From: Bacillus salipaludis
GTDB lineage: Bacteria; Bacillota; Bacilli; Bacillales_B; DSM-18226
DNA: 64,000 nucleotides
Direction: 5' to 3'
NCBI RefSeq assembly: GCF_004358205.1
Contig: NZ_SMYO01000006.1
Coordinates: 186,001-250,000, forward strand
The notes under the pieces are model-generated. The model saw only the letters and a list, made by a program, of their open reading frames with translations, was not told the origin of the DNA and did no database searches. Shown here one piece after another: positions 39,500 through 56,976 of this stretch (its first letter is position 1; every line of letters starts with the position of its first letter). Position numbers and translations under genes: made by a program.

Positions 39500-40549
39500 A
39501 TGAAAAAATTGGCCTTACTTATGACTGCTATTCTGATTTTCTCCATTTTTGCTGCCGGATGCAGTTCGAAAAGTTCGTCAGGAGGGAAAAAGGAGGTAAT
39601 AACAGTTTACACGGCGATTGAAGATAATCAGATTCCTGCCTATATCGAGTTATTCAATAAGGTCCATCCAAATATTGAGGTAAAGCTGGTCAGGGACTCA
39701 ACCGGTATTATTGCTGCGAAGCTGTTAGCGGAAAAAGATAATCCTGTTGCCGATGTGGTCTGGGGCCAAGGAATCACCAGCTTAATTCCACTCGATGAGG
39801 CTGGTTTGCTAGAAGCATATAACCCGAAAAATATCGACCAAATTATGCCGACCTTTAAGGATACAGCAAATCCTGTACACTGGGTCGGAATGGATGGATA
39901 TATGGCTACTTTTGCAGTTAATACCGTTGAATTAAAGAAAAAAGGCTTGCCAATTCCACAATCCTATCAAGATCTGTTAGATCCAAAATATAAAGGACTC
40001 ATTTCCATGCCAAATCCGGCTTCAAGTGGTACTGGATTTTTAACGGTCTCAGCACTATTACAGTTAATGGGTGAAGACCAAGCCTGGGATTATATGAATA
40101 AGCTCCATGAGAATATCGGTATTTATACCCATTCCGGTTCCAAGCCGGCGAAACAAGCAGGAGAGGGAGAATTTCCAATCGGGATTTCATTTGACTACCC
40201 AAGCTTTAAAGAAAAAGAGTCAGGTGCACCAGTCGAAGTGGTATTCCCTAAAGAAGGTTCAGGTTGGGAAATGGAAGCAACCGCACTCATCAAGAAGCCA
40301 AAAATCAAAAAGGCAGCTAAAACCTTTATGGATTGGGTAACAACAAAGGATTTCTTGCAGCTGGTGAATAAAAACTTTGCCGTTGTCTCAGAAGACTTAG
40401 GTAACCCGCTGCCAAATGGTTATCCTCAAGATCTACTAGATAAACAATTAATTAAAAACGACTTCCAATGGGCTGGAAAACAACGTGAGGCTATTTTAGC
40501 AGAATGGACGAAACGTTACGATTCGAAGAGTGAACCAAAAGAAGAGTAA
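39500..40549 (+). CDS. 2-Aminoethylphosphonate ABC importer, binding lipoprotein
   Basis: A 349-residue lipoprotein (signal peptide, lipobox FAAGC near residue 21) of the iron/AEP-binding PhnS-like class, with EVITVYTAIEDNQIPAYIELF at the mature N-terminus, VADVVWGQG near residue 84 and SSGTGFLTVSALLQLMG near residue 175. The assignment to AEP rests on the downstream phnW and phnX genes as well as family resemblance. AAAAAGGGG precedes the ATG. Confidence 0.85.
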   Translation: MKKLALLMTAILIFSIFAAGCSSKSSSGGKKEVITVYTAIEDNQIPAYIELFNKVHPNIEVKLVRDSTGIIAAKLLAEKDNPVADVVWGQGITSLIPLDEAGLLEAYNPKNIDQIMPTFKDTANPVHWVGMDGYMATFAVNTVELKKKGLPIPQSYQDLLDPKYKGLISMPNPASSGTGFLTVSALLQLMGEDQAWDYMNKLHENIGIYTHSGSKPAKQAGEGEFPIGISFDYPSFKEKESGAPVEVVFPKEGSGWEMEATALIKKPKIKKAAKTFMDWVTTKDFLQLVNKNFAVVSEDLGNPLPNGYPQDLLDKQLIKNDFQWAGKQREAILAEWTKRYDSKSEPKEE

Positions 40550-40580
40550 AGTGTAATAAACAATACCATCTAAAAAAGGA

Positions 40581-40635
40581 AAGAAAACTTTGCATGGTTG
40601 GATTTTTCATACACTTTGCGAAGTTTTCTTTTCCG
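40581..40635 (+). terminator. Attenuator-like hairpin after the binding-protein gene
   Basis: AAGAAAACTTTGC pairs with GCGAAGTTTTCTT (one mismatch) across a 24-nt loop, followed by TTCC. It probably lowers expression of the ATPase and permease relative to the binding protein. Confidence 0.5.
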
Positions 40636-40666
40636 ATATGAACGTAATAGGGAAAGGGGACTTTTG

Positions 40667-41665
40667 ATGGAACAGCTACTAGGTATTCAAAATGTAACGA
40701 AAACCTTCGGGAAATTTGTTGCGCTTGACCATGTTAATTTTTCCGTTAGCAAAAAGGAATTTGTCTGTTTATTAGGGCCGAGCGGCTGTGGGAAAACGAC
40801 GTTACTGCGGATTATTGCCGGCCTCGAGGAACCAAATTTTGGTTCGAAAATTTTATTAGAGGGAAAGGATATTACTTCATCTCCTCCTTCAAAAAGAAAT
40901 TTTGGAATTGTTTTTCAATCCTATGCCTTATTTCCCAATTTGACGGCCTATCAAAATATTGCCTATGGTTTAAAAAACAAGAAGTTATCGAAAAAAGTAA
41001 TCGACGAAAAAGTTCGTGAAGCACTTTCTCTTGTTCATTTAGAGCATATTAAGGACCGTTATCCGGCGCAATTATCGGGGGGGCAGCAGCAGCGGATTGC
41101 CTTAGCAAGAGCGCTAGCGTTATCACCAACATTCCTGCTCTTAGATGAACCATTATCAGCACTTGATGCAAAGGTTCGACTAAAATTGCGAATTGAGATT
41201 CGTAAATTACAAGAAAAGCTGGGAATCACCACCATTATGGTAACGCATGATCAAGACGAAGCATTGACAATGGCGGATAAAATTGTCGTAATGAACAACG
41301 CAAGATTGGAGCAAATCGGAACACCGCAGGAAATCTATGAAAATCCGAAAACTCCATTTGTAGCGGATTTCATCGGGACAGTCAATATGCTGGCCCATGA
41401 AGGAACAACCGCTGCCATTCGGCCAGAACATATTCAAATTTCAGAAACTGTCTCAACAAATAGTATCCAAACGATTGTAAAAGCAATGGAATTTCGCGGG
41501 GCTTTTTATCGGTTATTCTTGGACATTACCGATCCGAACTATCTGGTTGCTGACGGATTACTAGCCGTCGATGTTCCCGCTTCAATAATTAAAAAGCTAA
41601 ATATTGATAAAGAAAGTGTTTTGAATGCGGAGCTGCCGCAAAACCATCTCGTTACATACGCCTGA
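40667..41665 (+). CDS. AEP importer ATP-binding protein
   Basis: A 332-residue ABC ATPase (PhnT-like). Walker A is GPSGCGKTT, the signature [14 protein letters not shown], Walker [12 protein letters not shown], and the switch region VTHDQDEA; the C-terminal domain is TOBE-like. The ATG at 40667 has AAAGGGG 6 nt upstream; the in-frame stretch back to 40598 lies in the hairpin and is not coding. Confidence 0.92.
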
Positions 41666-41724
41666 ACGGTACAAGTAAATCTGACAATCGGGTAGAGGTG
41701 GAAAAGAATGTTGAGGTGATCTAG

Positions 41725-43527
41725 TTGATTAGTGAGGAACAGGTAATAAATCCAACAGAGGTTCCGGTACAATCTAATGTACATCGAAAGAAAATCCGTC
41801 AAAAGACCGGTAAGACGGAATGGTTTCATAAATCCTTAATTGTCTTGATGCTTTTAGGACTAATCATTGGAATTGTCCTGCCGTTAATTCAGTTATTTTT
41901 TGAAGCGCTAAAGGATAAAAACGGTGCCTATGCCGGGTTTGTCAATTTTGTCCATTATTTTCAAACCCCATCTCTCGTTCAGTCTATGTACAATACCTTA
42001 TTTATTTCGATTATAACCGGAGTAATCTCGGTAGTGCTGGCGTTTTTTTATGCTTATGCATTAACTCGGACGCAAATCCGCTGGAAAGGATTTTTTAAAT
42101 ATATCGCTTTTCTCCCTTTGTTTGCCCCTACGATGATGCATGGAATTGCACTGATATATTTATTTGGGAATAAAGGGGCATTCACTACCGGTTTTTTTGG
42201 ATTTTTTGAAAAAATATTTGGAACGGCTTTAGGAATTGATATCCATTTATATGGCCCTGTGGGAATTGTCATCTCTGAAGTCATCTATACATTCCCGCAA
42301 GCGTTTTTAATTTTGATGGTGGCGATATCTGTAACAGATTACAGACTATACGAGGCAGCCGAGACGCTTGGGTCCGGGAAAATGAAAAAGTTTTTTACGG
42401 TAACGATTCCAAGTATTAAATATGGTTTGGTTAGTGCCTTTTTTGTAGCCTTTATTTTAAGCTTTACCGATTTTGGCGCGCCAAAGGTGGTCGGGGCCCA
42501 ATACAATGTGCTTGCAACGGATATTTATAAGCAAGTGGTCGGACAGCAGAATTTAAGCATGGGTTCAACCGTTGGGATTATTTTAATCATTCCGGCATTG
42601 ATCGCGTTTCTTGCCGACCGAATGATGCAAAGGAAACAAAGTGCTTCCTTTTCTTCAAAATCCGTTTCCTATAAAATTAAGAAAAATCCATGGCGTGACA
42701 GGACTTACTTTGTATATTGCCTTCTGATTTCCTTGGGTGTTTTATCCTTAATCGGTGCTATCATTGCTGCTTCCCTTGTGAAGGTCTGGCCATACAATTT
42801 TTCTTTGACGCTTGAGCATTTAACTTTTAAAAATGTCGCAGGGAATGGGCTTGAGCCTTATTTTAATAGCCTTTACGTATCGCTTATTACCGCTATTATT
42901 GGTACGATGGTCATTTTCTTTGGGGCATATCTCATTGAAAAAACGCGGTTTATGAAGGTAACGAGGCAGGTAAGTTACTTTTTATCGATTTTACCGCTGG
43001 CATTGCCTGGACTTGTTATTGGGTTAGCGTATATCTTTTTCTTTAATAAACCGGAATTTAATTTTTGGGGGTTGACGATTGTTAATCCGTTTCAATCCCT
43101 ATATGGAACATTTATGATCATCATCATAGCGAATATTATCCATTTTTATTCGGTCAATCTCATTACGGCAACAACGGCTTTGAAAAAATTAGACAAGGAA
43201 TTTGAGCCGGTTTCTGAATCAATGAATATTCCGTTTTATAAAACTTTTTTCAATGTAACGGTTCCTATGTCGATTCCTGCAATTTTGGAGATTGGAATTT
43301 ATCTGTTTGTTAACTCAATGACTACAATCTCGGCGGTCATTTTCCTTTACACTGCAGATACTAAGCTTGCATCGATCTCAATTGTGAATATGACAGATGC
43401 GGGGGACACCGCTCCAGCCGCTGCCATGTCTTTCATCATTGTTCTCACGAATATTTTTGTTCGGGTCGCTTATGAATTTGCTACCAAGAAAATTAGAAAA
43501 CGAACGCAAGCCTGGCAGCAGCGGTAA
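41725..43527 (+). CDS. AEP importer double-domain permease
   Basis: A 600-residue permease carrying two transport domains in one chain with about twelve membrane helices. The EAA loops are EAAETLGSGKMKKFFTVTIP near residue 210 and SESMNIPFYKTFFNVTVP near residue 490. It corresponds to fused PhnU and PhnV. The TTG at 41725 has GAGGTGAT 6 nt upstream. It is followed directly by a strong terminator, so the transporter forms its own operon. Confidence 0.9.
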   Translation: MISEEQVINPTEVPVQSNVHRKKIRQKTGKTEWFHKSLIVLMLLGLIIGIVLPLIQLFFEALKDKNGAYAGFVNFVHYFQTPSLVQSMYNTLFISIITGVISVVLAFFYAYALTRTQIRWKGFFKYIAFLPLFAPTMMHGIALIYLFGNKGAFTTGFFGFFEKIFGTALGIDIHLYGPVGIVISEVIYTFPQAFLILMVAISVTDYRLYEAAETLGSGKMKKFFTVTIPSIKYGLVSAFFVAFILSFTDFGAPKVVGAQYNVLATDIYKQVVGQQNLSMGSTVGIILIIPALIAFLADRMMQRKQSASFSSKSVSYKIKKNPWRDRTYFVYCLLISLGVLSLIGAIIAASLVKVWPYNFSLTLEHLTFKNVAGNGLEPYFNSLYVSLITAIIGTMVIFFGAYLIEKTRFMKVTRQVSYFLSILPLALPGLVIGLAYIFFFNKPEFNFWGLTIVNPFQSLYGTFMIIIIANIIHFYSVNLITATTALKKLDKEFEPVSESMNIPFYKTFFNVTVPMSIPAILEIGIYLFVNSMTTISAVIFLYTADTKLASISIVNMTDAGDTAPAAAMSFIIVLTNIFVRVAYEFATKKIRKRTQAWQQR

Positions 43528-43538
43528 TAAAAATCTTG

Positions 43539-43571
43539 TAGATGTAGAGAACCTCTACATCTAATTTTTTT
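43539..43571 (+). terminator. Strong Rho-independent terminator
   Basis: TAGATGTAGAG pairs perfectly with CTCTACATCTA (11 bp) around AAC, followed by a run of T. Confidence 0.9.
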
Positions 43572-43610
43572 ATATTTTGCTTTGCTACCCATCTTTGTTG
43601 GTGCATAGTC

Positions 43611-44145: not shown

Positions 44146-44349
44146 AACGCTTGAAGGCATAAAGAAAACCAAAAAAATTGAAATACTAGGGCCTATTTCT
44201 TAAAAAGTACCAATAAAAACAAATAAAAACAAACTAAATATCGAAAAAACTATTCACAATTATCTGAAAACATGGTATTCTTATTTACAAGATACGTAAC
44301 GAAAGCGTTTGCAGACGTAGCTTAGTCCCAGAAAAACAGGAGGTTGTAT
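44146..44349 (+). promoter_or_regulatory. Upstream region of the MHS transporter gene with cre-like site
   Basis: An AT-rich region. ACGAAAGCGTTTGCA at 44299-44313 is one mismatch from the cre consensus WTGNAANCGNWNNCW. No terminator or other gene was seen. Confidence 0.4.
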
Positions 44350-45684
44350 ATGACGACAAAAGTTCATTCAAAGAAGGTGAGGGTAAAAGCATTAGTTGCT
44401 AGTTTGATAGGGAGTTCAATCGAATATTATGATTACCTTCTCTATGGTACAGTAGCTGCACTTGTGTTTAACAAACTTTTTTTTCCAAACTTCGATCCGA
44501 CGGTAGGGCTTCTGATTGCATTAGCATCGTTTGGAATTCCTTACTTCTTCCGACCGCTTGGAGGAGTAATCTTCAGTCATATCGGTGATCGGCTTGGGAG
44601 GAAAAAATCATTAGTTTTAACCCTTGGAATCATGGGAATAAGCACTGCACTTATTGGAGTATTACCGGTCTATGAAAATATCGGTGCATGGGCTCCGATA
44701 TTACTTGTTGCACTGAGGCTCATTCAAGGGATTGCCGTCGGCGGTGAATGGGGAGGCGCTGTCCTTTTAGCAGTGGAATATTCCGAGAAAAAGAAGCGCG
44801 GGTTTGCCGGCAGTGTACCAATGATGGGCGCAGCAGTCGGGATGATATTAGCCACGGCTACCATCTCTTTAATGAGATTACTGCCGGATGCACAGTTCCT
44901 GGCATGGGGCTGGAGAGTTCCGTTTGTCGCAAGCCTATTACTTGTTATTCTTGGCTTGTGGATTCGGAATGGTTTAGAAGAGACACCGGATTTCCAAAAG
45001 GCAAAAGATGAAGGAAACGTCTCCAAATTACCGATTGCGGATACCTTTAAAAATCACTGGAAAGAAGTGATCTTAACAACTGGTGCAAAGGCCATCGAGA
45101 CCGCACCCTTTTATATCTTTGCAACCTTTGGAATTTCTTACGCCACCAATACACTGAAGATGCCTGAAGGCCCTGTTTTAAATGCTGTAACCATTGGCAC
45201 ACTGATTTCCTTGGTCATGATTCCCACCATGGGACATTTGTCTGACCGGTTTGGACGAAAAAAAATATTCGTTATCGGGACAATCAGTGTCATTTTATTT
45301 TCCATGCCTTACTTCTTTTTGCTTTCAAAAAAATCAATCCTCTTATTAACCATTGCCGTTATGATCGGATATGCCATCTGGTCGATCATCACCTCAGTTT
45401 TAGGTACCATGTTTTCAGAAATGTTTCGTGCAGAAGTTCGCTATACCGGTATTTCAATGGGCTATCAGCTTGGAGCTGCCATCTTTGGCGGTACCGCCCC
45501 ATTGATTGCTACATCATTGGTCACCGCTTTCCATGGTTCCTGGATTCCGGCTTCCATTTATTTGATGCTTCTCGGAGTCATGTCCCTTATTTGTGTGAGT
45601 CTTATGAAAACCATGAGTGATAAAGAAAAAAATAAGCCAAGAAAACAATCGAAACCATTGCTCACAAAGGCGGCTAATAAATAA
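44350..45684 (+). CDS. MFS transporter, metabolite:H+ symporter (MHS) family
   Basis: A 444-residue transporter with twelve membrane helices. The N-terminus SLIGSSIEYYDYLLYGTVAAL and the loop GDRLGRKKSLV are typical of the MHS group (ShiA/ProP/YhjE-like), which takes up organic acids, betaines and similar solutes. The ATG at 44350 has CAGGAGG 6 nt upstream. It directly precedes phnW, so it may carry a phosphonate or a related carboxylate (inference), giving the locus two uptake systems. Confidence 0.85.
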   Translation: MTTKVHSKKVRVKALVASLIGSSIEYYDYLLYGTVAALVFNKLFFPNFDPTVGLLIALASFGIPYFFRPLGGVIFSHIGDRLGRKKSLVLTLGIMGISTALIGVLPVYENIGAWAPILLVALRLIQGIAVGGEWGGAVLLAVEYSEKKKRGFAGSVPMMGAAVGMILATATISLMRLLPDAQFLAWGWRVPFVASLLLVILGLWIRNGLEETPDFQKAKDEGNVSKLPIADTFKNHWKEVILTTGAKAIETAPFYIFATFGISYATNTLKMPEGPVLNAVTIGTLISLVMIPTMGHLSDRFGRKKIFVIGTISVILFSMPYFFLLSKKSILLLTIAVMIGYAIWSIITSVLGTMFSEMFRAEVRYTGISMGYQLGAAIFGGTAPLIATSLVTAFHGSWIPASIYLMLLGVMSLICVSLMKTMSDKEKNKPRKQSKPLLTKAANK

Positions 45685-45728
45685 AGAAACCTTGACCCTA
45701 AATAATATTTTTAAAGGAGAATATACGA

Positions 45729-46862
45729 ATGAATAAAAATGATTTCACAAACAACCCATACTTATTGCTGACCCCGGGTCCCTTAACTACGACGGATACA
45801 GTAAAACTTGCGATGATGAAGGACTGGTGTACATGGGATGACGACTACAATAATATTGTCCAAGACATCCGAAAAAGGCTTGTTGGGCTTGCAACCGAAT
45901 CAATTGATCAGTATTCAGCAGTATTAATGCAGGGAAGCGGGACCTTTAGTGTAGAATCCGTTATTGGTACGGTTTTACCTCGGGACGGAAAATTATTGGT
46001 CATTGCAAACGGAGTCTATGGAAGCCGAATCGTTAAAATCGCTAAAACGCTTGGGATAAATACTGTTGTTTTAGAAAGCGGTGAGGTGGAGGCTCTTGAT
46101 TTAAATCGTTTAACAAATGAGCTGGAAAATGATTCGAAGATTTCCCATGTGGCGATCGTTCATTGCGAAACCACAACAGGCATGCTGAATCCAATTGAAA
46201 AAGTAAGTGAAATTGTTAAACGATACAACCGCGTGTTTATTGTCGATGCGATGAGCAGCTTCGGCGGTGTTGAAATGGATATCGCCTCGCTTAATATTGA
46301 TTACCTCATCAGCAGTGCCAATAAATGTATTGAAGGTGTCCCTGGATTCGGGTTTGCGATTGTCAAAAAGGATGAATTTGAGAAGTGTAAAAATAATGCC
46401 AGGTCTGTTTCTTTAGATTTATATGATCAATGGAAAACGATGGAGGAACAAAATGGGAAGTGGCGCTTTACTTCGCCGACGCATGTTGTTCGTGCCTTTG
46501 CTCAAGCCTTAAAAGAGTTAGAGGTTGAAGGCGGAATCAAAATTAGAGCAAGCAGGTATAAGAATAATCAAATGGTTCTCTCCGAAGGAATGAAAAAGCT
46601 TCAATTTGAGCCAATCCTTCCTGGAGAATTGCAATCTCCAATCATTACTTCCTTTTATTATCCGGAGTCTGAAAAGTTCAACTTTAAAGTGTTCTATCAA
46701 AGGTTAAAAGAAAAAGGATTCGTGATTTATCCTGGAAAGGTTTCAGCCTTAGATACCTTCCGGATTGGGAATATCGGAAACGTTCATCAGAAGGATATTG
46801 AGGGTTTATTACAAGCAATCGAACAAAGCAGCTTTTGGCTCGACGCTGTTTCTAAGAATTAA
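45729..46862 (+). CDS. phnW: 2-Aminoethylphosphonate--pyruvate transaminase
   Basis: A 377-residue fold-type-I PLP enzyme converting AEP and pyruvate to phosphonoacetaldehyde and alanine. Family-typical [18 protein letters not shown] at the N-terminus, Asp173 ([11 protein letters not shown]) and Schiff-base Lys199 ([13 protein letters not shown]) are present. AAAGGAG precedes the ATG. Together with PhnX at 50063 this is the classical AEP route; here the two are separated by the regulator, an MgtC-like gene and a saccharopine-dehydrogenase-like gene. Confidence 0.93.
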
Positions 46863-46961: not shown

Positions 46962-46987
46962 GATATTTATATCGTGGGGTGAATGAG

Positions 46988-47779
46988 TTGTCATTAGCTG
47001 GGGAAGAAAGAAAAAGGAAAATACTTGAACTCCTTGAAATCAGCGGCAAAGTTAAAGTTAATGAATTGGCAGAAATATTGGAAGTTTCAACTGAAACCAT
47101 TCGTAAATATTTAGATGAGTTACAGCAGGAAGAAAAATTAAAAAAGGTTTATGGCGGGGCAATCAATATATCCTTTTTTAATGAGGAGCCTCCAACTGTA
47201 GAAAGAGAGGTGACCCACTCTGAAGCCAAACAACGAATCGGAGAGTACGCAGCAAGCTTAATTACTGATAATGACGTCATTGCGATTGATGACGGAAGCA
47301 CACCGCTGCAGCTCGTTAAAAACTTGCGTAAAAAGCGGAATTTAACGATTTTTACTACCTCAATTTCGGCTCTATCGGTGTTAATCGACTTGCACCAGCA
47401 AAATATTTTCACAGGTAAGATTATCATGCTTGGCGGGGAGATAAACACCACTCATCATCGTGTAACGGGGAGCTTTACGATCGAAATGCTGGAAAATCTA
47501 TATGTAGATAAATATTTTATCTCAGCCGACGGTTTAACAAAAGAAACCGGAATTACCAGCTTTGATTCTTCTAAAGGAATGGTAACGAGAAAGTTAATTG
47601 ATCATTCCAGCAAATCAATTGTCCTGATTGACCATTCCAAAGTGGGCAAACGGACTCATTATAAGATGGCTGATTTGCAGGATATTGATATCATCATTTC
47701 TGATAAAGAACACCCACAGGAATGGGAATATCTATTAAAAGAAAATCATGTAAAATGGCTAGTTGCCGACAAGAAATAA
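46988..47779 (+). CDS. DeoR family regulator of the phosphonate locus
   Basis: A 263-residue DeoR protein with a winged helix (LAEILEVSTETIRKYLDEL near residue 24) and sensor domain (IAIDDGSTPLQLVK near residue 95; VLIDHSKVG near residue 212). The TTG at 46988 has GGGGTGA 5-6 nt upstream; a GTG at 46979 overlaps that site. DeoR sensors bind phosphorylated metabolites, so phosphonoacetaldehyde, AEP or acetyl-phosphate are reasonable effector candidates (inference). It is paralogous to 27515. Confidence 0.85.
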   Translation: MSLAGEERKRKILELLEISGKVKVNELAEILEVSTETIRKYLDELQQEEKLKKVYGGAINISFFNEEPPTVEREVTHSEAKQRIGEYAASLITDNDVIAIDDGSTPLQLVKNLRKKRNLTIFTTSISALSVLIDLHQQNIFTGKIIMLGGEINTTHHRVTGSFTIEMLENLYVDKYFISADGLTKETGITSFDSSKGMVTRKLIDHSSKSIVLIDHSKVGKRTHYKMADLQDIDIIISDKEHPQEWEYLLKENHVKWLVADKK

Positions 47780-47837: not shown

Positions 47838-48356
47838 ATGGAGCATTTGGGAGTCTTTTACGAAGAGCATCTTTTTAAAAATATTGAGATTTATCTTCGT
47901 TTAGTGATTAGCGCCCTCCTTGGGATGTTTATTGGCTGGGACCGCAGTGCCAAAAATAAGCCAGCGGGTTTAAAAACTTTTACCTATGTTTCCGTTTCAT
48001 GTACACTCATTACACTCGTTTCCATTTATAGTGTGGAGGTTTTTGGCAGCTCTAACCCCAATAATCGTATGGATCCGATGAGGCTGACAGCGCAAATTGT
48101 TTCCGGGCTTGGCTTTTTGGGGGCTGGCTTGATTTTAAAGGATGGATTGCAGGTTAAAGGTTTAACATCTGCGGCGATGATTTTTTTTGCAGGTGGTGTT
48201 GGGATTGGTATAGGGGCTGGTTTTTATGGCTTGGTTTTTGCTTCGGTCCTAATTACTTTTATCCTAGCAAAAATAAGCCAGGTAATTGAACATCGTCATC
48301 TAATGACTATGGAAAAAGAAGAGGAAAAACACGGCTACCATCGAAGTTCAGGATAA
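47838..48356 (+). CDS. MgtC/SapB family membrane protein
   Basis: A 172-residue protein with four to five membrane helices and the MgtC signature (LRLVISALLGMFIGWDRSAKNKPAGLKTFTYVS; GLGFLGAGLIL). It lacks the C-terminal ACT-like domain of enterobacterial MgtC. MgtC-like proteins are linked to Mg2+/phosphate homeostasis; a role in balancing phosphate released by PhnX is possible but unproven. AAAGGAGG precedes the ATG and a very strong terminator follows. Confidence 0.85.
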   Translation: MEHLGVFYEEHLFKNIEIYLRLVISALLGMFIGWDRSAKNKPAGLKTFTYVSVSCTLITLVSIYSVEVFGSSNPNNRMDPMRLTAQIVSGLGFLGAGLILKDGLQVKGLTSAAMIFFAGGVGIGIGAGFYGLVFASVLITFILAKISQVIEHRHLMTMEKEEEKHGYHRSSG

Positions 48357-48560: not shown

Positions 48561-49757
48561 ATGAAAGTCTTTTGTTTGGGTGGAGCAGGGAGAATTTGCC
48601 GGGAAGCCGTTTTGGATCTTGTCGAGCATTCTGATTTTGATGTCATTACCATTGGTGACTTTAATGAGGAACTAGGCCTTGATTTAGTAAAGGAACTGAA
48701 TGACCCCCGAGTGAATTTTGTAAAGGTAAATGTATTTAACCATGAGGAAACAGTTAAACAATTGAAAGGCTACGATATTGTCATGGATGGAACTACGATC
48801 ACATTAAACGGCCTTTCTACTGCCTCTATTGCAGAAGCCGGCTGCCATGGAATCAATTTAAACGGCTTTGGAGCAGAGGATGAATTTTCCGAAATCTTTA
48901 AGAAACATAATCGAACCGCAGTTCCCGGTTTTGGAATGACCCCGGGTGTTACACAAATGATGGCGATGCACGCTGCCAACCAATTAGATGAGGTAGAAAC
49001 AGTGCGAGTAAGCCATGGCTCTTTCCGTCCAATTGCATTTTCAAAATCGATTACCGAAACCACCACCTACGAATACGACCCAGACCTTCCTGGACGAATC
49101 GTTTTTGAAAAAGGCGAATTCGTTCAAGTCCCTCCTTTCGCAAGACCAAGAAAAATTCAGCTTCCAGAGCCTTATGGCGAAACCATTCAATATATTATTC
49201 CGCATTCAGAAACTCGTACCCTAGCAAAAGCGCTTGCGAATAAAGGTGTAGAGCTGATTGAAGTGCGGGGAACCTGGCCAAAACAGAACATGCAATTAGT
49301 TCGTGCCCTCTATGATTACGGAATTATGCGCAACCCAAAGGTTGAAATCAACGGTCAAGAGGTTGGTGTCATGGATGTAATAGGTGAGTATCTCCTTCAA
49401 TCAAAAGAAGGCCAAGAAACAGAGCTGTACGGATATTCGCTGCATATTGAAGCCGTTGGGAAAAAGGATGGAATACGGAAACGCCATATTTTATACCATA
49501 CGCATCCTGCTAGTGACGGTTCTGTTAAAGGATGGGAAAAATTACGTGCGTATACCCGCAATGTCGGAATTCCAATGGCAATTGCGACCGAGTTAATTGC
49601 TAAAGGATTGGTTGAAAAAACAGGTGTACTTATTCCGGAAGAAGCATTTGAACCAACCGTCATTTTTGAAGAACTGAAAAAACGCGGCATCTATATTCAC
49701 GAAGAAATTGAAATCGTTACCGAAAGCGTTGAAGAAGAAACAACGATCCAAGCATAA
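48561..49757 (+). CDS. Saccharopine-dehydrogenase-like oxidoreductase
   Basis: A 398-residue protein with an N-terminal NAD(P)-binding Rossmann fold (VFCLGGAGRICREAVLDLV) and a saccharopine dehydrogenase C-terminal-type domain (PGFGMTPGVTQMMA near residue 124). Enzymes of this superfamily act on imino/amino-acid adducts. The ATG at 48561 has AGGGGGCG upstream. It lies in the phosphonate locus between phnW and phnX with its own promoter. A part in handling amino compounds or reducing a reactive aldehyde adduct is conceivable, but no substrate is visible. Confidence 0.75.
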   Translation: MKVFCLGGAGRICREAVLDLVEHSDFDVITIGDFNEELGLDLVKELNDPRVNFVKVNVFNHEETVKQLKGYDIVMDGTTITLNGLSTASIAEAGCHGINLNGFGAEDEFSEIFKKHNRTAVPGFGMTPGVTQMMAMHAANQLDEVETVRVSHGSFRPIAFSKSITETTTYEYDPDLPGRIVFEKGEFVQVPPFARPRKIQLPEPYGETIQYIIPHSETRTLAKALANKGVELIEVRGTWPKQNMQLVRALYDYGIMRNPKVEINGQEVGVMDVIGEYLLQSKEGQETELYGYSLHIEAVGKKDGIRKRHILYHTHPASDGSVKGWEKLRAYTRNVGIPMAIATELIAKGLVEKTGVLIPEEAFEPTVIFEELKKRGIYIHEEIEIVTESVEEETTIQA

Positions 49758-50938: not shown

Positions 50939-51457
50939 GTGAATGGATTGCAAAAACATGCCTATGCACTGGGGATGATCGAAACAATAGGCTTTCCGGC
51001 ACTGATTGCTGCGGCAGATGCTGCTTCAAAGGCAGCGGATGTAAGGGTTGTCACCTACCAGGGAGCAGATTCGGGTATAGTGACTATTTACATCATCGGC
51101 GATGTCGCAAGCGTAAAATCAGCTGTCGAGGTTGGGACAGAAGCTGCCAAAAGGGTTGGTCAACTACGTCATTCTCATGTCATTGCCAGACCAGATGACC
51201 ATATCATTCAAATGCTTTTTCCGTCGCTATTAAAGAAAGCCGAGGAAAAATCGGAACCGTCAGAGCCTAAAGTAGTAAAAAATATAGACCAAGAAAAACC
51301 AAAGGAATGGACTAAAACTAGTCTTCAAGAGCTAAGAGAACTTGCTAATTCATACGAAGGTTTTCCTTTATCACTCCAAGAAATTTCTTCGGCTAAAAAA
51401 GAGGATTTAGTAAAACAGATTAGCAGGTTCCTAGCTGAGAAAGGTGGCGACAATTGA
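50939..51457 (+). CDS. BMC-H shell protein with C-terminal SAP/Rho-N-like extension
   Basis: A 172-residue shell subunit. Residues about 9-92 are a BMC-H domain (YALGMIETIGFPALIAAADAA ... HSHVIARPDDHIIQ). A charged linker (about 95-122) leads to a helical tail, WTKTSLQELRELANSYEGFP...EDLVKQISRFL, which resembles SAP/Rho-N-type helical hairpins. Extended BMC-H proteins (PduK/EutK-like) are known, EutK having an HTH tail. The tail may recruit cargo or nucleic acid. The GTG at 50939 follows AAAAGGTG; a TTG at 50948 is an alternative. It ends at the next ATG. Confidence 0.85.
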   Translation: MNGLQKHAYALGMIETIGFPALIAAADAASKAADVRVVTYQGADSGIVTIYIIGDVASVKSAVEVGTEAAKRVGQLRHSHVIARPDDHIIQMLFPSLLKKAEEKSEPSEPKVVKNIDQEKPKEWTKTSLQELRELANSYEGFPLSLQEISSAKKEDLVKQISRFLAEKGGDN

Positions 51458-52932
51458 TGTACTTGGATCAGGATCTGGAATCGATGCAAGAGGGGAGACG
51501 AAATCTCGAGCAAGCGAAACAAGCACAGAAAACGCTTGGCACTTTGACACAGGACCAAGTGGATCAAATTGTTCACAGAATGGCCCAAGCGGCCATCAGG
51601 GAAGCAGGCAGGCTTGCGGCATTAGCGGTGGAAGAAACAGGGTATGGAAAGGTTGAGGATAAGAGGGTCAAAAACCTTTTTGCAGCGAATGAAGTGTATG
51701 AATCGATAAAAGATAAGAAAACAGTGGGAATCATTGCCCGTAACGAGGAGAAGCAGGTTTGGGAAGTGGCTGAACCAGTGGGCACGATTGCAGCGGTTAT
51801 TCCTTCGACAAACCCAACTTCAACTGTGATATTTAAAGCTTTGATTGCAATGAAATCAAGAAATGCCATCGTTTTTAGCCCGCATCCTTCTGCAGCAAAA
51901 TGTACGAATGAAGCGGTAAAGGTGATGAAGGAAGCAGCAGTGGCAGCAGGTGCACCCGATGGAGCCATTTCCTGTATTTCAAACCCGACGCTATCTTCGG
52001 TCCAGGAAGTCATGAATCATACACTGACTGATTTGATTTTAGCGACGGGTGGTCCGGGTATGGTAAAGGCAGCCTATAGCTCAGGGAAACCTGCCTATGG
52101 AGTTGGACCCGGGAATGTACCAGTGTATATCCACTCAAGTGCAAATATTGGGAAAGCAGTCAGTCAAATTGTTCAGAGTAAAACCTTTGATTATGGAATC
52201 ATCTGCGCCTCAGAACAGGCACTAGTGGTGGACGGGTCCGTTAAACGAAAGGTTAAAGCGGTTCTAGAAAAACAAGGAGCGTATTTCCTTGATGACTATG
52301 AAAAGAAAAAGCTAGAAGAGCTTATTTTGAAGAATGGAAGTTTGAATCCGGCGATTGTTGGAAAATCCCCGCAAGAATTAGCACAATTGGCGGGAATACT
52401 CATTTCAGAGGATACAAGATTGCTAGTGGCAGAGGAGGCCAAGGTTGGTAAAGCATACCCGTTTTCTCTTGAAAAGCTTTCTCCAATTCTTGCTTTTTAT
52501 ACGGTTGAAGGCTGTTCCGAGGCAGGTAAAGTGTGTAATGAATTATTAGAACTCGGTGGTTTAGGGCATACGATGGGGATTCATTGTGAAGATAAACAAA
52601 TTGTTGAAAGCTTTAGTCTTTCACAAAACGTCTCGCGGGTTGTCGTAAATTCAGGGACGACATTTGGTGGAATCGGTGCGACAACCGGTATTTCACCATC
52701 GATGACACTTGGCTGTGGGACCTACGGAAACAATATTTCGTCTGACAATATTGGTCCGGAGCATTTATTGAATATAAAACGGATCGCCTTTGGTATTAGG
52801 GAGATGAAAAATGAAGCCCCAGCAGTGACTTCAGGTTCACAGCAAACAGTTACAAACAATGAGACGCTTATTTCTAAAGCTGAGGTTATGGAAATCGTAA
52901 AGAGTATTTTAAAAGAATTAAATTTTAAATGA
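51457..52932 (+). CDS. BMC-type CoA-acylating aldehyde dehydrogenase
   Basis: A 491-residue EutE/PduP-like enzyme oxidising acetaldehyde with CoA and NAD+ to acetyl-CoA. The catalytic Cys250 is in FDYGIICASEQ; IPSTNPTSTV and GVGPGNVPVYI are family-typical. After a Ser/Thr/Asn-rich linker, the C-terminal 21 residues (LISKAEVMEIVKSILKELNF) form an amphipathic helix of the kind that targets cargo into shells. The ATG at 51457 overlaps the previous stop (TGATG), with AAAGGTGG upstream. Confidence 0.93.
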   Translation: MYLDQDLESMQEGRRNLEQAKQAQKTLGTLTQDQVDQIVHRMAQAAIREAGRLAALAVEETGYGKVEDKRVKNLFAANEVYESIKDKKTVGIIARNEEKQVWEVAEPVGTIAAVIPSTNPTSTVIFKALIAMKSRNAIVFSPHPSAAKCTNEAVKVMKEAAVAAGAPDGAISCISNPTLSSVQEVMNHTLTDLILATGGPGMVKAAYSSGKPAYGVGPGNVPVYIHSSANIGKAVSQIVQSKTFDYGIICASEQALVVDGSVKRKVKAVLEKQGAYFLDDYEKKKLEELILKNGSLNPAIVGKSPQELAQLAGILISEDTRLLVAEEAKVGKAYPFSLEKLSPILAFYTVEGCSEAGKVCNELLELGGLGHTMGIHCEDKQIVESFSLSQNVSRVVVNSGTTFGGIGATTGISPSMTLGCGTYGNNISSDNIGPEHLLNIKRIAFGIREMKNEAPAVTSGSQQTVTNNETLISKAEVMEIVKSILKELNFK

Positions 52933-52945
52933 GGAGGAATAAACA

Positions 52946-53227: not shown

Positions 53228-53230
53228 ACG

Positions 53231-54013
53231 ATGACGATTATTACGGAATCCAAACTTAGAGCCATGCTGAAAAATGGGATTCCTAATCCTTTCACCCTTG
53301 GCGAGGGGGAAAAACTTACCCCTTCTGCCAGGGATTTTCTTCGCGAAAGACGGATTGTTGTAAAGCAACAGCACAGGATTAAAAAGGCAGCGTCTGTGGA
53401 TGAAAAGGCTGAAAGCCCTTTAATTCCTGTAGGCGTATCTAACCGGCATGTCCATTTATCATTGTCAGATCTGGAGGCCTTATTTGGAAACGGTTATTTG
53501 TTAACACCGTTTCGGGAGTTATCACAACCGGGTCAATTTGCTGCCAAGGAGCAGGTTACCTTATTGGGTCCAAAGGGGATTATCCAAAATGTAAGAATTC
53601 TCGGACCTGCTAGGGGAGAAACACAGGTGGAAATTTCCATAACCGATGGATTTCAAGTAGGAGTCCATCCCCCTGTCCGTTTATCCGGTTCGATTGAAGG
53701 CACACCCGGACTGACTCTTGTCGGTCCAAAAGGGTGTGTGGTGATGGAAAAAGGGGTAATTGTTGCGAAACGCCATGTTCATCTTTCGCCTGATGATGCA
53801 AAAGAACTCAATGTGGAGCAGGGGGATCGACTATTGCTCGAAACCGTCGGAGACCGGCGGATTATTTTTTCGGATGTGGTTGTTCGTGTGAATCCTTCTT
53901 ATCGTAGGGATTTCCATGTAGATCTCGACGAGGGGAATGCGGCGGGTTTAAAAACGGGTGACCTTGTTAAAATCATTGGAAAAAATGATCAGTTTAATTG
54001 GCAAGGGAGGTGA
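53231..54013 (+). CDS. pduL: BMC phosphotransacylase PduL with N-terminal extension
   Basis: A 260-residue PduL enzyme converting acetyl-CoA and phosphate to acetyl-phosphate, regenerating CoA inside the shell. The zinc-binding histidine motifs of the two half-barrels are VGVSNRHVHLS (His73, His75) and VAKRHVHLSPDD (His182, His184). The first 60 residues are an extension with EGEKLTPSARDFLRERRIVV, matching the C-terminus of the next protein and EutT-like proteins; it may aid encapsulation. It starts 3 nt after the shell gene. Confidence 0.92.
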   Translation: MTIITESKLRAMLKNGIPNPFTLGEGEKLTPSARDFLRERRIVVKQQHRIKKAASVDEKAESPLIPVGVSNRHVHLSLSDLEALFGNGYLLTPFRELSQPGQFAAKEQVTLLGPKGIIQNVRILGPARGETQVEISITDGFQVGVHPPVRLSGSIEGTPGLTLVGPKGCVVMEKGVIVAKRHVHLSPDDAKELNVEQGDRLLLETVGDRRIIFSDVVVRVNPSYRRDFHVDLDEGNAAGLKTGDLVKIIGKNDQFNWQGR

Positions 54014-54837
54014 GGAGCATCGATATTCGAGTGATGATTGAGTCGGTTGTGAAGGAAGTTGTCCAATCGATGAAAGTCGAAAAGGAAAAAGAGCAGATCG
54101 GGAAAGTGTTATTCGTTTTTTGTGATAGTTCGGCACATGAGCCGTTTGCTGATCAGTTTATTAAATTAAAGAACCATAAAATCGGGTATGACTTGTTATT
54201 TTTAGATGGTGAAACTTCTTCCTGGCTGGGGATGCAGCGAATTGAGTCAAGCGGTTCTGATCGAATTATCGCGGCTGATGAATATTCTCCTGCTGCGATC
54301 GAACTGCCGCAGGAATACGATGGAATCGTTATTCCGGAAATTGATTTGGATAATGCAGCGAGAATCGTAACCGGCTTAAAAGGTACAATTAAAGCTGAAT
54401 TGATTTTTTCGGCGATTATCTTGGAAAAGTTTCTTATTGTTGGGGATGATACCCCTGGAATTAAGAGAGCCGACCGCCGTTGTTTAAAAGCACTTTCTTT
54501 ACCAGGACCTTACCGGAAACGGTTTGAATCCTATGTGGAAGGGTTGAAGGAGCTAGGTATAGAGTTTTTGCCGCAAATGGAGTTAGCAGATGCGGTAATT
54601 GATAAATTCGGTGATCGCCTGGCAAAGTCGCCAGCTGCTAAAACGGAAGAAATAAATCATGCAGATGATGGAGGTTTGACCTTCACGAAAAAACTTCTCA
54701 CCCCCGAATGGATTAAGGCCCAGCAGGAATTCCCAAATCATATCCTTACCCTTCCAAAAGGCGTTATTATTTCCCCTTTGGCAAAGGATTTGTTAAAGGA
54801 GAAAAAATTGACCATCAAGTATATCGGTAAAGGATGA
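54010..54837 (+). CDS. BMC-associated flavoprotein-like protein
   Basis: A protein of about 275 residues. The N-terminal helix SIDIRVMIESVVKEVVQSMK resembles an encapsulation peptide. A central alpha/beta domain (about 35-200; KVLFVFCDSS, YDGIVIPEIDLDNAARI, IVGDDTPGIKRADRR) recalls the flavoprotein (PF02441-like) fold, and the C-terminus VIISPLAKDLLKEKKLTIKY repeats the motif in the PduL extension. The GTG at 54010 overlaps the pduL stop as GTGA; a TTG at 53998 lacks a ribosome binding site. A redox role, for instance recycling NADH, is a hypothesis, since no alcohol dehydrogenase is present. Confidence 0.65.
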   Translation: MRSIDIRVMIESVVKEVVQSMKVEKEKEQIGKVLFVFCDSSAHEPFADQFIKLKNHKIGYDLLFLDGETSSWLGMQRIESSGSDRIIAADEYSPAAIELPQEYDGIVIPEIDLDNAARIVTGLKGTIKAELIFSAIILEKFLIVGDDTPGIKRADRRCLKALSLPGPYRKRFESYVEGLKELGIEFLPQMELADAVIDKFGDRLAKSPAAKTEEINHADDGGLTFTKKLLTPEWIKAQQEFPNHILTLPKGVIISPLAKDLLKEKKLTIKYIGKG

Positions 54838-54843
54838 TGTAGA

Positions 54844-55119
54844 GTGCGGCTAGCGAGGGTTGAAGGGAGTATCTGGGCGATTCAAAAGGAAAAGGGAATG
54901 GAAAACATCAAACTTCTCATTGTTCAGCCCATAAATGTGGAAAAACAACCTGAGGGAAATGTCATCATTGCGATGGACCGAATTGGTGCCGGAATTGGTG
55001 AATTTGTCATTATTACGCAGGGGACACCCGCACAAAAATTGATGGGCGAAAAGGGCGCCCCCATTGATGCAGCGATTGTGGGAATTGTCGATTCTTTAGA
55101 GGTACCTATTGATCAATAA
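54844..55119 (+). CDS. BMC-P vertex protein (EutN/CcmL family)
   Basis: A 91-residue pentameric vertex subunit that closes shell corners: RLARVEGSIWAIQKEKGMENIKLLIVQPI at the N-terminus and GAPIDAAIVGIVDSLEV at the end are typical. GTG start, with AAAGGATG upstream. It is the only vertex gene in the locus and the last gene of the shell operon. No BMC-T gene is present in the window. Confidence 0.93.
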   Translation: MRLARVEGSIWAIQKEKGMENIKLLIVQPINVEKQPEGNVIIAMDRIGAGIGEFVIITQGTPAQKLMGEKGAPIDAAIVGIVDSLEVPIDQ

Positions 55120-55629
55120 AGTAGGCTTTTGAAGGACAAAACCAGTAGTGAAATCAAAGAAAGTGTCCTTCTATCGGGTCTGGAAGGACAAAACCAGTTG
55201 TGAAACCAAGGAAAGTGTCGTTCTATCGGTTCTGGAAGGACAAAACAAGTAGTGAAACCAAAGAAAATGTCCTTCAAAGGGGTATGGAAGGACAAAACCA
55301 GTATTGAAATCAAAGAAGGAGTCCTTCTACAAAGTCTGGAAGGACAAAACCAGTAGGAAATCAAAGAAAGTGTCCTTCTATCGGGTATGGAAGGACAAAA
55401 CCAGTTGTGAACCCAAGGAAAGTGTCCATCAAAGGGTTCTGGAAGGACAAAACAAGTAGTGAAACCAAGGGAAGTGTCCTTCTATTGTAGCTGGAAGGAC
55501 AAATCTAGTCGCCAAATCAAGAGAAGTTTTCTTAAAAGGAATCTGAAAGGACAAAACAAGCAGTGAATTCAAAGAAGTGTCCTTAAAAAAGCTTTGTTAC
55601 AAAGGTGGTGTTATCAAGGAGTGGCAAAT
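55120..55629. repeat. Tandem hairpin array B (nine 51-52-nt units)
   Basis: AAGGACA(A) recurs at 55132, 55184, 55236, 55288, 55340, 55391, 55443, 55495 and 55547: a 52-nt period with one 51-nt step. Each junction forms TGTCCTTC-N11-GAAGGACA (8-bp stem). Units are more diverged than in array A. It fills most of the gap between the vertex gene and the PbfA-like gene; the last 40 nt hold the AAGGAG of the next gene. It is not coding on either strand. Confidence 0.9.
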
Positions 55630-56976
55630 ATGAGAAACCTTGATTCAGAGCTATTAAGAACAGAAGGAGATATTAATTTATCTCAAAATCGTAAAGAATG
55701 GCAGGAGCGCCATCTAAGTGAGCAAGCCTTTCAACTTTTAGAAGAGGATTCCGAATTTTATCTGCACCAGTCGCTTTCCACCCCTTGCTTAAATGTGATT
55801 GAAAAAAGCTACGGGATTTACCTTGAAGATATTGATGGAAGAAAATATATGGATTTTCATGGGAACAGCGTTCACCAGGTTGGGTATGGAAATCAGTACG
55901 TGATCAAGGCGGTCAAGGATCAGTTGGATGTTCTACCTTTTTCCCCGCGCCGATACACGAACAACACAGCCATTCAACTGGCAAGAAAACTGGTGGAACT
56001 TGCTCCGGGACATTTAAATAAAGTACTTTTAGCGCCAGGCGGGGCATCTGCTGTAAGTATGGCTTTGAAGCTCGTCCGTAAGGCAACCGGAAAGTTTAAG
56101 ACCATTTCAATGTGGGATTCCTTTCATGGAGCTAGTTTGGATGCGATATCTGTCGGCGGCGAAGCTATTTTTCGCAATGGAATGGGTCCGCTTATGCCAG
56201 GAACTCTACAGGTGATGCCGTATAATTCCTATAGATGTTTTTTCGGGGATCGTAATGCCAGCAATGAGAAGGGGCTGGATTATCTTGAGTATGTTATGGA
56301 GCGCGAAGGGGATATAGGTGCAATTATCCTTGAACCGATCAGGTGCACAGATGTACAAATACCACCAAAGGAATATCATCAACGATTAAGACAAATATGT
56401 GATACCCATGGAGTATTGTTGATTTATGACGAAATACCAACGGCACTGGGCCGAACAGGGGAAATGTTTGCCTTTGAAAATTATGGGGTCCTTCCAGATA
56501 TTGTCCTGCTTGGCAAAGGACTTGGTGGAGGGGTATTTCCAATGGCAGCGATGCTTGCCCGCGAGGATTTAGATGTTGCCGGGGATATTGCTTTGGGACA
56601 CTTTACACATGAAAAAAGCTCCCTTGGCTGTGCGGCCGCACTCGCCACCCTCCAGTATATCGAGGACTTCCGTTTGCTAGAGCGAGCAAACTCCTTAGGG
56701 GAATATATGAAAACTCGTTTGTTGGCCATGCAAAACCGATTTGAACTGATTGGGGATGTCCGCGGAATCGGTTTGCTATATGGGGTGGAGCTGGTTCTTA
56801 ACCGTAAGACAAAAGCGAAGGCCGTTTCCGAAGCCGAACGAATCATGTATAAATGCATGGAAAAGGGATTAAGCTTTAAGGTATCACAGGGGAATGTACT
56901 AACCCTTGCCCCGCCATTAACTATTACTGAAAAAGAATTGGAACTGGCAATGGATATACTTGAGAAATCTTTTTAA
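55630..56976 (+). CDS. pbfA: Class-III PLP enzyme, probable (R)-1-hydroxy-2-aminoethylphosphonate ammonia-lyase (PbfA-like)
   Basis: A 448-residue class-III aminotransferase-fold protein: IYLEDIDGRKYMDFHGN, Asp in LIYDEIPTALGRTG, Schiff-base Lys in LLGKGLGGGVFPMAAM, and FTHEKSSLGCAAALATL. PbfA enzymes have this fold and feed hydroxy-AEP into the PhnWX route as phosphonoacetaldehyde and ammonia; their genes sit beside phnW and phnX. Context supports that reading, but an AEP or omega-amino transaminase cannot be excluded from sequence. The ATG at 55630 is 8 nt from AAGGAG. Confidence 0.7.
   Translation: MRNLDSELLRTEGDINLSQNRKEWQERHLSEQAFQLLEEDSEFYLHQSLSTPCLNVIEKSYGIYLEDIDGRKYMDFHGNSVHQVGYGNQYVIKAVKDQLDVLPFSPRRYTNNTAIQLARKLVELAPGHLNKVLLAPGGASAVSMALKLVRKATGKFKTISMWDSFHGASLDAISVGGEAIFRNGMGPLMPGTLQVMPYNSYRCFFGDRNASNEKGLDYLEYVMEREGDIGAIILEPIRCTDVQIPPKEYHQRLRQICDTHGVLLIYDEIPTALGRTGEMFAFENYGVLPDIVLLGKGLGGGVFPMAAMLAREDLDVAGDIALGHFTHEKSSLGCAAALATLQYIEDFRLLERANSLGEYMKTRLLAMQNRFELIGDVRGIGLLYGVELVLNRKTKAKAVSEAERIMYKCMEKGLSFKVSQGNVLTLAPPLTITEKELELAMDILEKSF

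What the first reader, a model, noticed from the sequence alone, without database searches (positions are those of the whole stretch)
39500..56976. Phosphonate (2-AEP) catabolism built into a bacterial microcompartment locus
Seen: phnX is followed, with short gaps or overlaps, by BMC-H, CoA-acylating aldehyde dehydrogenase, BMC-H, pduL, a flavoprotein-like gene and BMC-P, and lies downstream of an AEP importer and phnW. Known: PhnX releases acetaldehyde, the volatile toxic intermediate that Eut-type shells contain. No ethanolamine lyase, diol dehydratase, glycyl-radical enzyme or aldolase is present. Inferred: a phosphonate-utilising metabolosome with PhnX as signature enzyme, yielding Pi, acetyl-CoA and acetyl-phosphate. 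I do not recall a described BMC class of this kind, but could not check.
Basis: partly seen in the sequence, partly recalled or inferred. Interest (0 to 1): 0.96.

Follow-up and report, generated by a model that had tools for sequence, protein, structure and literature searches.

The report
Phosphonate-fed bacterial microcompartment operon
Some soil bacilli carry a protein-shelled organelle kit that looks like the ethanolamine microcompartment with its entry enzyme replaced by the one that splits a natural phosphonate breakdown product into phosphate and acetaldehyde, a pairing not found in the papers searched.

Summary
Observation confirmed. PhnX (50063-50875) is followed by BMC-H, acylating acetaldehyde dehydrogenase, BMC-H, PduL, a flavoprotein-fold cargo and BMC-P, downstream of a PhnS2T2U2 importer and PhnW. 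Gene 55594-56976 is PbfA, which also makes phosphonoacetaldehyde. In 80 loci with this module, 17 carry PhnX and no EutB/C/L, 61 carry EutB+EutC and no PhnX, none both; 2 contigs cut off at the module have neither. The 17 lie in 16 genomes of three families; BMC-linked PhnX form one clade. In two of 13 genomes searched this locus holds the only shell genes, and one of the two lacks ethanolamine lyase, diol dehydratase and glycyl-radical enzyme. An operator-like repeat lies before the phnW-side or phnX-side operon in 10 of 16 loci, before both in 3. Not shown: that PhnX is inside the shell; it lacks the encapsulation-peptide pattern that ACDH carries. No paper found links phosphonates to BMCs; catalogue supplements could not be read. 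New variant of a known kind.

The parts
39500..40549 (+). phnS2, AEP-binding protein of ABC importer
   Evidence: TIGR03261 464.8 bits, cut-off 392.75
40667..41665 (+). phnT2, importer ATPase
   Evidence: TIGR03265 464.2 bits, cut-off 457.7
41725..43527 (+). phnU2, importer permease
   Evidence: TIGR03262 751.4 bits, cut-off 593.25
44207..44233 (+). operator-like direct repeat, three AAACMAA half-sites at 10-base spacing, before the MFS-phnW genes
   Evidence: score 19 of 21; 0 of 100 Markov-simulated copies as high; strict pattern hit at 44217. Binding not tested
44344..45684 (+). MFS metabolite/H+ symporter
   Evidence: PF07690; TIGR00883 436.9 bits, just below cut-off 443.45
45729..46862 (+). 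phnW, 2-AEP:pyruvate transaminase
   Evidence: TIGR02326 578.1 bits, cut-off 400.8
46979..47779 (+). DeoR-family regulator
   Evidence: PF00455, PF08220; homologues in many of the phnX-BMC loci
47838..48356 (+). MgtC-family membrane protein
   Evidence: PF02308
48421..48491 (+). operator-like direct repeats before the saccharopine-DH-like gene
   Evidence: best site 48421-48447 scores 18 of 21, 3 of 100 simulated copies as high; a second, weaker copy from 48467; no strict pattern hit here
48561..49757 (+). saccharopine dehydrogenase-like protein, role unknown
   Evidence: PF16653, PF03435; no NCBIfam match at 1e-10; also in shell-less phn operons L107, L109
50063..50875 (+). phnX, phosphonoacetaldehyde hydrolase; putative signature enzyme
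   Evidence: TIGR01422 366.9 bits, cut-off 220; residues 7-261 of 270 match solved phosphonoacetaldehyde hydrolases such as 2iof and 1rql
50939..51457 (+). BMC-H shell protein with C-terminal extension (weak Rho_N resemblance)
   Evidence: PF00936 86.3 bits; Rho_N below its cut-off
51454..52932 (+). CoA-acylating acetaldehyde dehydrogenase with C-terminal encapsulation-peptide pattern
   Evidence: TIGR02518 over cut-off; best solved match 5j78, acetaldehyde dehydrogenase (acetylating); terminal helix
52946..53227 (+). BMC-H, EutM-like major shell protein
   Evidence: PF00936; NF012018 EutM 123.1 bits, just below cut-off 133
53231..54013 (+). PduL-type phosphotransacylase
   Evidence: PF06130; NF011652 over cut-off
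53998..54837 (+). flavoprotein-fold protein with N-terminal encapsulation-peptide-like helix, probable cargo
54844..55119 (+). BMC-P shell vertex protein
   Evidence: PF03319
55594..56976 (+). [quoted passage not shown] second feeder of phosphonoacetaldehyde
   Evidence: NF049939 723.3 bits, cut-off 525; same place in L013 and L014

Best explanation
This is a phosphonate-utilisation metabolosome. AEP is imported (PhnS2T2U2, perhaps the MFS protein); PhnW moves its amino group to pyruvate, giving phosphonoacetaldehyde and alanine; PbfA makes the same aldehyde from (R)-1-hydroxy-AEP; PhnX splits it into phosphate and acetaldehyde; a minimal shell (two BMC-H, one BMC-P, no EutL) confines acetaldehyde while the acylating dehydrogenase turns it into acetyl-CoA and PduL into acetyl phosphate. 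The module is the EUT module of Bacilli with EutA, EutB, EutC and EutL absent and PhnX in the signature-enzyme place. Shown: gene identities by family models, mutual exclusion of PhnX and EutBC, conservation, a candidate shared operator. Inferred: enzyme activities, shell assembly, flux, regulation. Unsettled: whether PhnX sits inside the shell (my estimate about 0.55), attaches to it, or is cytosolic.
For: Same module in 80 loci: PhnX in 17, EutB+EutC in 61, both in 0, neither in 2 contigs cut off at the module. PhnX is otherwise uncommon: over cut-off in 16 of 151 family-sample genomes and 6 of 398 phylum-sample genomes. BMC-linked PhnX form one clade, 98/96 support, and are 65-94% identical to the window's, against 36-60% for the PhnX outside BMC loci (a second PhnX-like gene in L026 is 49%). 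phn gene order differs among loci, yet PhnX stays with the module. Alanine dehydrogenase, which would regenerate PhnW's pyruvate, follows bmcP in 6 of 17 loci. Operator-like repeats: 28 (partly overlapping) hits in 16 PhnX loci, 16 of them within 400 bases upstream of permease/MFS, phnW, saccharopine-DH-like or phnX genes; 5 hits in 39 EutB loci; 0-6 in 20 simulations. In G557 (Scopulibacillus, L026) and G555 (Peribacillus simplex, L022) this locus holds the only BMC-H and BMC-P genes found; G557 has no EutB, PduC or glycyl-radical enzyme.
Against: PhnX shows no encapsulation-peptide pattern (0 of 18 rows), unlike EutC of the sister loci (49 of 62). No alcohol dehydrogenase is in the locus, so NAD recycling is unexplained. 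In the family sample 15 of 18 PhnX genes have no shell genes in the stretch read, so the chemistry does not need a shell. 11 of 13 such genomes also carry an EUT shell locus that could share parts, and several carry shell-less EutBC. L024 lacks bmcH1 to most of pduL. The 17 loci may descend from one event, so they are not independent. Most Brevibacillus loci lack the repeat. No expression data.
Confidence: 0.87

Rival explanations
1. PhnX works in the cytosol; the shell takes up the acetaldehyde it releases and only ACDH, PduL and the flavoprotein-fold protein are inside. (A variant of the best explanation.)
For: No encapsulation-peptide pattern on PhnX (0 of 18 rows), PhnW (0 of 16) or alanine dehydrogenase (0 of 6), while ACDH has one in 17 of 17 and the flavoprotein-fold protein in 11 of 18. 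15 of 18 PhnX genes in the family sample have no shell genes nearby.
Against: Acetaldehyde made outside could leak before capture, which defeats the usual purpose (inference). PduL fails the same pattern (0 of 17) though PduL is an accepted cargo elsewhere (recalled), and the PhnX C-terminal helix is as amphipathic as that of ACDH (moment 0.59 vs 0.56). BMC-H1 differs from its EUT counterpart at one near-fixed site, Gln41 (17/17) for Glu (50/55), next to the pore loop, a change that would suit an anionic substrate entering.
Confidence: 0.4
2. The shell really serves ethanolamine lyase encoded elsewhere, and phnX is an incidental neighbour.
For: EutB is encoded in 12 of 13 PhnX-BMC genomes. Besides shell-bearing loci, shell-less EutBC copies were seen in L115, L116, L118, L119, L123, L125 and L126, and beside the EUT locus in L128/L129; G552 has EutABC-EutL without other shell genes (L120). 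The shell-less EutC of L115 and L123, and EutC of L120, begin with helices that look like encapsulation peptides.
Against: 11 of the 12 have a separate EUT locus with its own shell, the nearer home for such EutBC; in G555, where this is the only shell, EutC has no such N-terminus; G557 has no EutB at all; operator-like repeats are shared with the phnW side.
Confidence: 0.05
3. The module is a general acetaldehyde sink fed by other enzymes, PhnX being one minor source.
For: ACDH and PduL are generic for acetaldehyde; no near-fixed ACDH, BMC-H2 or BMC-P difference between PhnX and EutB loci.
Against: PhnX or EutBC is present in 78 of 80 loci, the other 2 being cut off; candidate operator links it to AEP genes. 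Aldolases and other acetaldehyde sources were not searched for genome-wide.
Confidence: 0.06
4. Chance adjacency.
For: None found.
Against: 17 loci in 16 genomes, two diverged copies in one genome.
Confidence: 0.005

Closest known systems
EUT2-like ethanolamine microcompartment of Bacilli (Paenibacillus, Cohnella, Brevibacillus, Geobacillus and other loci found here; the EUT2 label is my inference from ACDH type and PduL)
   Same: Gene order BMC-H, type I ACDH, BMC-H, PduL, flavoprotein-fold protein, BMC-P; C-terminal peptide on ACDH
   Different: PhnX in place of EutA/B/C; no EutL trimer; no EutW-like sensor recognised and only 27-38% identical response regulators in 3 of 17 loci; DeoR regulator, phnW and transport genes instead
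Hydrolytic AEP pathway PhnW-PhnX (with PbfA)
   Same: Same enzyme families
   Different: 15 of 18 PhnX genes of the family sample stand without shell, acylating dehydrogenase or PduL
SPU (sugar phosphate utilisation) microcompartment
   Same: Also a phosphorylated-substrate pathway giving acetaldehyde to a core AldDh (PMC8217296, parts 1-3 of 7 read)
   Different: Signature enzymes are DeoC-type aldolase and RpiB; no C-P cleavage
ARO microcompartment
   Same: Similarly simple shell: two BMC-H kinds and one BMC-P (PMC8217296)
   Different: Aromatic substrate; AldDh without a detectable encapsulation peptide

Membership tests
[quoted passage not shown]
   PF00936 twice, PF03319 once
Metabolosome-type BMC | Core aldehyde dehydrogenase (pfam00171) | tested here: met
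   PF00171, TIGR02518 over cut-off, C-terminal peptide pattern as in type I
Metabolosome-type BMC | Phosphotransacylase (PduL) | tested here: met
   PF06130, NF011652 over cut-off
Metabolosome-type BMC | Signature enzyme that generates an aldehyde, in the locus | tested here: met
   PhnX by family model; activity itself not tested
Metabolosome-type BMC | Alcohol dehydrogenase for cofactor regeneration | tested here: not met
   None among the proteins scanned from 39500 to 59393. A passage of PMC4207490 says that of the EUT2 loci only EUT2A encodes EutG, so the feature is not universal
Metabolosome-type BMC | Encapsulation peptide on cargo | tested here: met
   ACDH 17 of 17, flavoprotein-fold protein 11 of 18; PhnX 0 of 18 rows
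Metabolosome-type BMC | Assembled polyhedral shell | not testable with these tools
   needs microscopy
EUT microcompartment | Ethanolamine ammonia-lyase EutB/EutC in the locus | tested here: not met
   0 of 17 PhnX loci have it
EUT microcompartment | EutL trimer in the locus | tested here: not met
   0 of 17 PhnX loci; 59 of 61 EutB loci have it
Hydrolytic AEP pathway | PhnW and PhnX together | tested here: met
   both over equivalog cut-offs in the window
HFCD flavoproteins (for the protein at 53998-54837) | Flavodoxin-like HFCD fold with flavin | tested here: inconclusive

The most novel reading that the evidence does not exclude
A phosphorus-conserving organelle: PhnX acts inside the shell and the phosphate it frees from the C-P bond is used at once by PduL, so the phosphonate's own phosphorus leaves as acetyl phosphate and then ATP, with CoA cycling inside. 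The compartment would turn a carbon-phosphorus bond into an energy-rich phosphate, and let these bacteria use AEP as carbon, nitrogen, phosphorus and energy source together.
Probability: 0.2. Interest if true: 0.93.

Novelty: new variant of a known kind. Interest (0 to 1): 0.86.

Why it matters
Signature enzymes define what microcompartments do. A shell module that pairs either with a B12-dependent lyase or with a C-P hydrolase, in different species and sometimes in one genome, suggests that a metabolosome can be re-tasked by exchanging its entry enzyme and dropping one shell trimer. It would link organelle biology to the phosphonate part of the phosphorus cycle, add a new substrate class to the catalogue of BMC types, offer a very small shell for engineering, and make it testable why acetaldehyde from AEP is enclosed in some bacteria and not in others.

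Tried and rejected
Own-genome checks: the window's assembly is not held; all genome-wide statements rest on relatives, mostly draft genomes. Encapsulation peptide on PhnX: looked for by alignment with shell-less PhnX, hydrophobic moment and pattern. The pattern was run on 18 rows from 17 loci (two rows are fragments of the broken L025 gene; the window's own gene was not in the count). The PhnX C-terminal helix has a moment (0.59) as high as ACDH's (0.56), but shell-less PhnX have a like helix, so no peptide is claimed. Pore change: only one near-fixed shell difference, Gln41 in BMC-H1, perhaps one event; suggestive only (a later pattern count, missed 9 of 17 and 33 of 57 sequences because the pattern was too strict, and is not used). 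Several independent enzyme swaps: not supported; in the ACDH tree PHN rows need 2 changes, of which well supported branches force 1, the four Brevibacillus rows grouping weakly (SH-aLRT 80) with EUT rows. Rfam: no meaningful match in 38800-57200 (one microRNA family match far below its cut-off is taken as chance). Promoter and terminator scan: counts near chance. PbfF racemase as identity of the saccharopine-DH-like gene: rejected, the paper's passages derive PbfF from D-hydroxyacid dehydrogenases.

Literature: searches (microcompartment or metabolosome with phosphonate, phosphonatase, phosphonoacetaldehyde, phnX or aminoethylphosphonate; ethanolamine utilization with phosphonoacetaldehyde hydrolase); two searches found the catalogue and PbfA papers. 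Listings only were seen for most; opened by passages were PMC3909097, PMC5820359, PMC12366243, PMC8154272, PMC4207490 and PMC9052549. Of the 27 papers with 'microcompartment' and 'phosphonate' two, PMC3909097 and PMC5820359, were opened; the other 25 were judged by title and abstract start. PMC8217296: parts 1-3 of 7 read and its main text searched for terms. None links phosphonate catabolism to a shell. Supplements could not be read, so a PhnX locus filed there under EUT2 or MIC is not excluded.
Full report
WHAT IS THERE. The window holds, all on the + strand, phnS2-phnT2-phnU2 (39500-43527), an MFS symporter, phnW (45729-46862), a DeoR regulator, an MgtC-like gene, a saccharopine-DH-like gene, phnX (50063-50875), BMC-H1, ACDH, BMC-H2, pduL, a flavoprotein-fold gene, BMC-P (to 55119) and pbfA (55594-56976). 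Family assignments pass curated cut-offs for PhnS2, PhnT2, PhnU2, PhnW, PhnX, ACDH, PduL and PbfA; shell domains pass Pfam's. PhnX matches solved phosphonoacetaldehyde hydrolases over residues 7-261 of 270, and ACDH best matches a solved acetylating acetaldehyde dehydrogenase.

IS IT MORE THAN CHANCE. The nearest held genome (G001, sharing 27% of the window's sampled words) has an orthologous locus (genes from phnU2 to the thioesterase 92-100% identical at the protein level) and a second, diverged copy (ACDH 79%, flavoprotein-fold protein 78%, BMC-H1 81%) with phnW, deoR, mgtC and phnX in the same order, besides a separate EUT locus. An alignment of 20 rows, the window's flavoprotein-fold protein and 19 homologues, was used to scan one genome per species: 87 confirmed relatives, the best 80 kept, the 7 weakest not seen. 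Classifying all 80: PhnX without EutB/EutC/EutL in 17; EutB and EutC without PhnX in 61 (59 also with EutL); both in 0; neither in 2, L014 and L052, whose contigs are cut off near the module. L014 has the window's own pbfA-kinase-thioesterase order downstream, so it is probably a PhnX-type locus too. The 17 come from 16 genomes named Bacillus, Neobacillus, Peribacillus, Lysinibacillus, Paenibacillus, Brevibacillus and Scopulibacillus. EutA, EutB, EutC and alanine dehydrogenase were confirmed by Pfam on one representative each; the EutL representative has a BMC domain and is called EutL by eye.

Seen from PhnX rather than from the shell: PhnX is over cut-off in 16 of 151 genomes of the family sample (18 genes) and 6 of 398 of the phylum sample (8 genes). 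Neighbourhoods of all these genes were read, up to about 10 kb each side where the contig allows: 3 of 18 and 2 of 8 are beside a BMC module (the two G001 genes are in both counts). The 18 BMC-linked PhnX rows in the tree are one clade with 98/96 support, within a larger clade that includes shell-less phnS2T2U2-phnX-phnW operons (L107, L109, L110), a plausible source. In the ACDH tree of 75 rows the EutB-type rows form one side of a branch (SH-aLRT 95); the PhnX-type rows need 2 changes, of which supported branches force 1. One acquisition, old and then kept, is the simplest reading; the loci are then not independent trials.

WHAT FEEDS AND WHAT CONTROLS IT. PhnW makes alanine from pyruvate; in 6 of the 17 loci (L015-L019, L021) an alanine dehydrogenase gene follows bmcP and would return the pyruvate. 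In the window, L013 and L014 pbfA stands there instead. A 10-base-spaced direct repeat of AAACMAA, noticed by eye in the window and L026, was tested on 16 PhnX loci (L025, frameshifted, and L014 left out): 28 hits, some overlapping (26 without L026), against 5 in 39 of the 61 EutB loci and 0-6 in 20 first-order Markov simulations; 16 of the 28 lie within 400 bases upstream of the permease/MFS, phnW, saccharopine-DH-like or phnX gene, in 10 of the 16 loci, and on both the phnW and the phnX side in 3 (L015, L018, L022). L024, L033 and L040 have no hit, the L028 and L053 hits are elsewhere (a looser score finds a site before the L053 saccharopine-DH-like gene), and some hits are inside genes. In the window the strict pattern hits before the MFS gene and once inside it; the site before the saccharopine-DH-like gene is weaker. 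In L015, L016 and L026, where no intact saccharopine-DH-like gene intervenes, the repeat precedes phnX and the shell genes directly. DeoR binding is inference.

DOES THE SHELL HAVE ANOTHER CLIENT. Thirteen of the 16 PhnX-BMC genomes were searched. EutB occurs in 12 (20 genes). In 11 there is a separate EUT locus with its own shell; G555 has EutABC without shell genes and with an EutC lacking the N-terminal helix; G557 has none. Told against my reading: shell-less EutBC copies also occur beside full EUT loci in several of these genomes (L115, L116, L118, L119, L123, L126, L128/L129), G552 has an EutABC-EutL module without other shell genes (L120), and EutC of L115, L120 and L123 begin with peptide-like helices; they may join the EUT shell or, in principle, this one. 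[quoted passage not shown] Diol dehydratase is found in 1 of 14 genomes (G556), a glycyl-radical enzyme in 1 of 4 searched (G001). For G557 none of these three kinds of signature enzyme was found; aldolases were not searched for.

RELATION TO WHAT IS KNOWN. It works like an EUT metabolosome but is not one: EutBC and EutL, tested, are absent in 17 of 17. The chemistry upstream is the known PhnW-PhnX (and PbfA) route. The main texts of the 2021 catalogue (PMC8217296; parts 1-3 of 7 read, term search) and the 2014 taxonomy (PMC4207490; term search) do not contain 'phosphon'; literature searches gave no paper that visibly links phosphonates to a microcompartment (most papers seen as listings). Subscription papers, preprints and supplements were out of reach.

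VERDICT. A real, conserved and, as far as the papers searched show, undescribed type of metabolosome locus, with PhnX in the signature place. Confidence 0.87 that it processes acetaldehyde from phosphonates; about even on PhnX being inside the shell.

Noticed in passing
window 43645-44131, 55131-55584, 38931-39079: Intergenic tandem arrays of 51-52-base units; the first two flank the MFS-to-bmcP segment. They may mark the segment as movable or be a genome-wide repeat.
   Followed up: no
window about 49897-50045: A palindrome-rich insert of about 150 bases just before phnX's ribosome site, absent from the otherwise matching leader of L013; a like word with 3 mismatches recurs at 60534. Possibly a small mobile repeat that could alter phnX-BMC expression.
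   Followed up: partly
window 22885-29306: A second SBP_bac_6 binding protein, type I phosphodiesterase/metalloenzyme, ABC permease and ATPase, DeoR and PHP-domain genes: perhaps another organophosphorus uptake cluster.
   Followed up: no
L120 8254-13654 (G552): EutC-EutB-EutA-EutL module without other shell genes, like the satellite EUT modules described in the catalogue paper; the genome also has the phosphonate locus L018 and a full EUT locus L121.
   Followed up: partly
L010 (G001 C4 276-295 kb): Another BMC locus with a class III aminotransferase, two aldehyde dehydrogenase genes, three BMC-P and two BMC-H; signature not identified.
   Followed up: no
L024 9775-10012: Phosphonate BMC locus of Brevibacillus borstelensis from which bmcH1, acdh, bmcH2 and most of pduL are missing; the genome has an EUT locus of the same module type (L039) that might supply them.
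   Followed up: partly
L026 4897-5715 and 6008-6850: Two PhnX-like genes in a row in the Scopulibacillus locus, 49% and 65% identical to the window's; the first groups with a shell-less PhnX (L112) on a long branch.
   Followed up: partly
window 50939-51457, C-terminal third: Extension on BMC-H1 with weak Rho_N resemblance, present in most PhnX loci and in two of three EUT loci printed, shorter and different in the Brevibacillus PhnX loci.
   Followed up: no
window 12803-13026: 18-base tandem repeat, 12.4 copies, inside a reverse-strand ORF 12607-13509 with no Pfam match at 1e-8.
   Followed up: no
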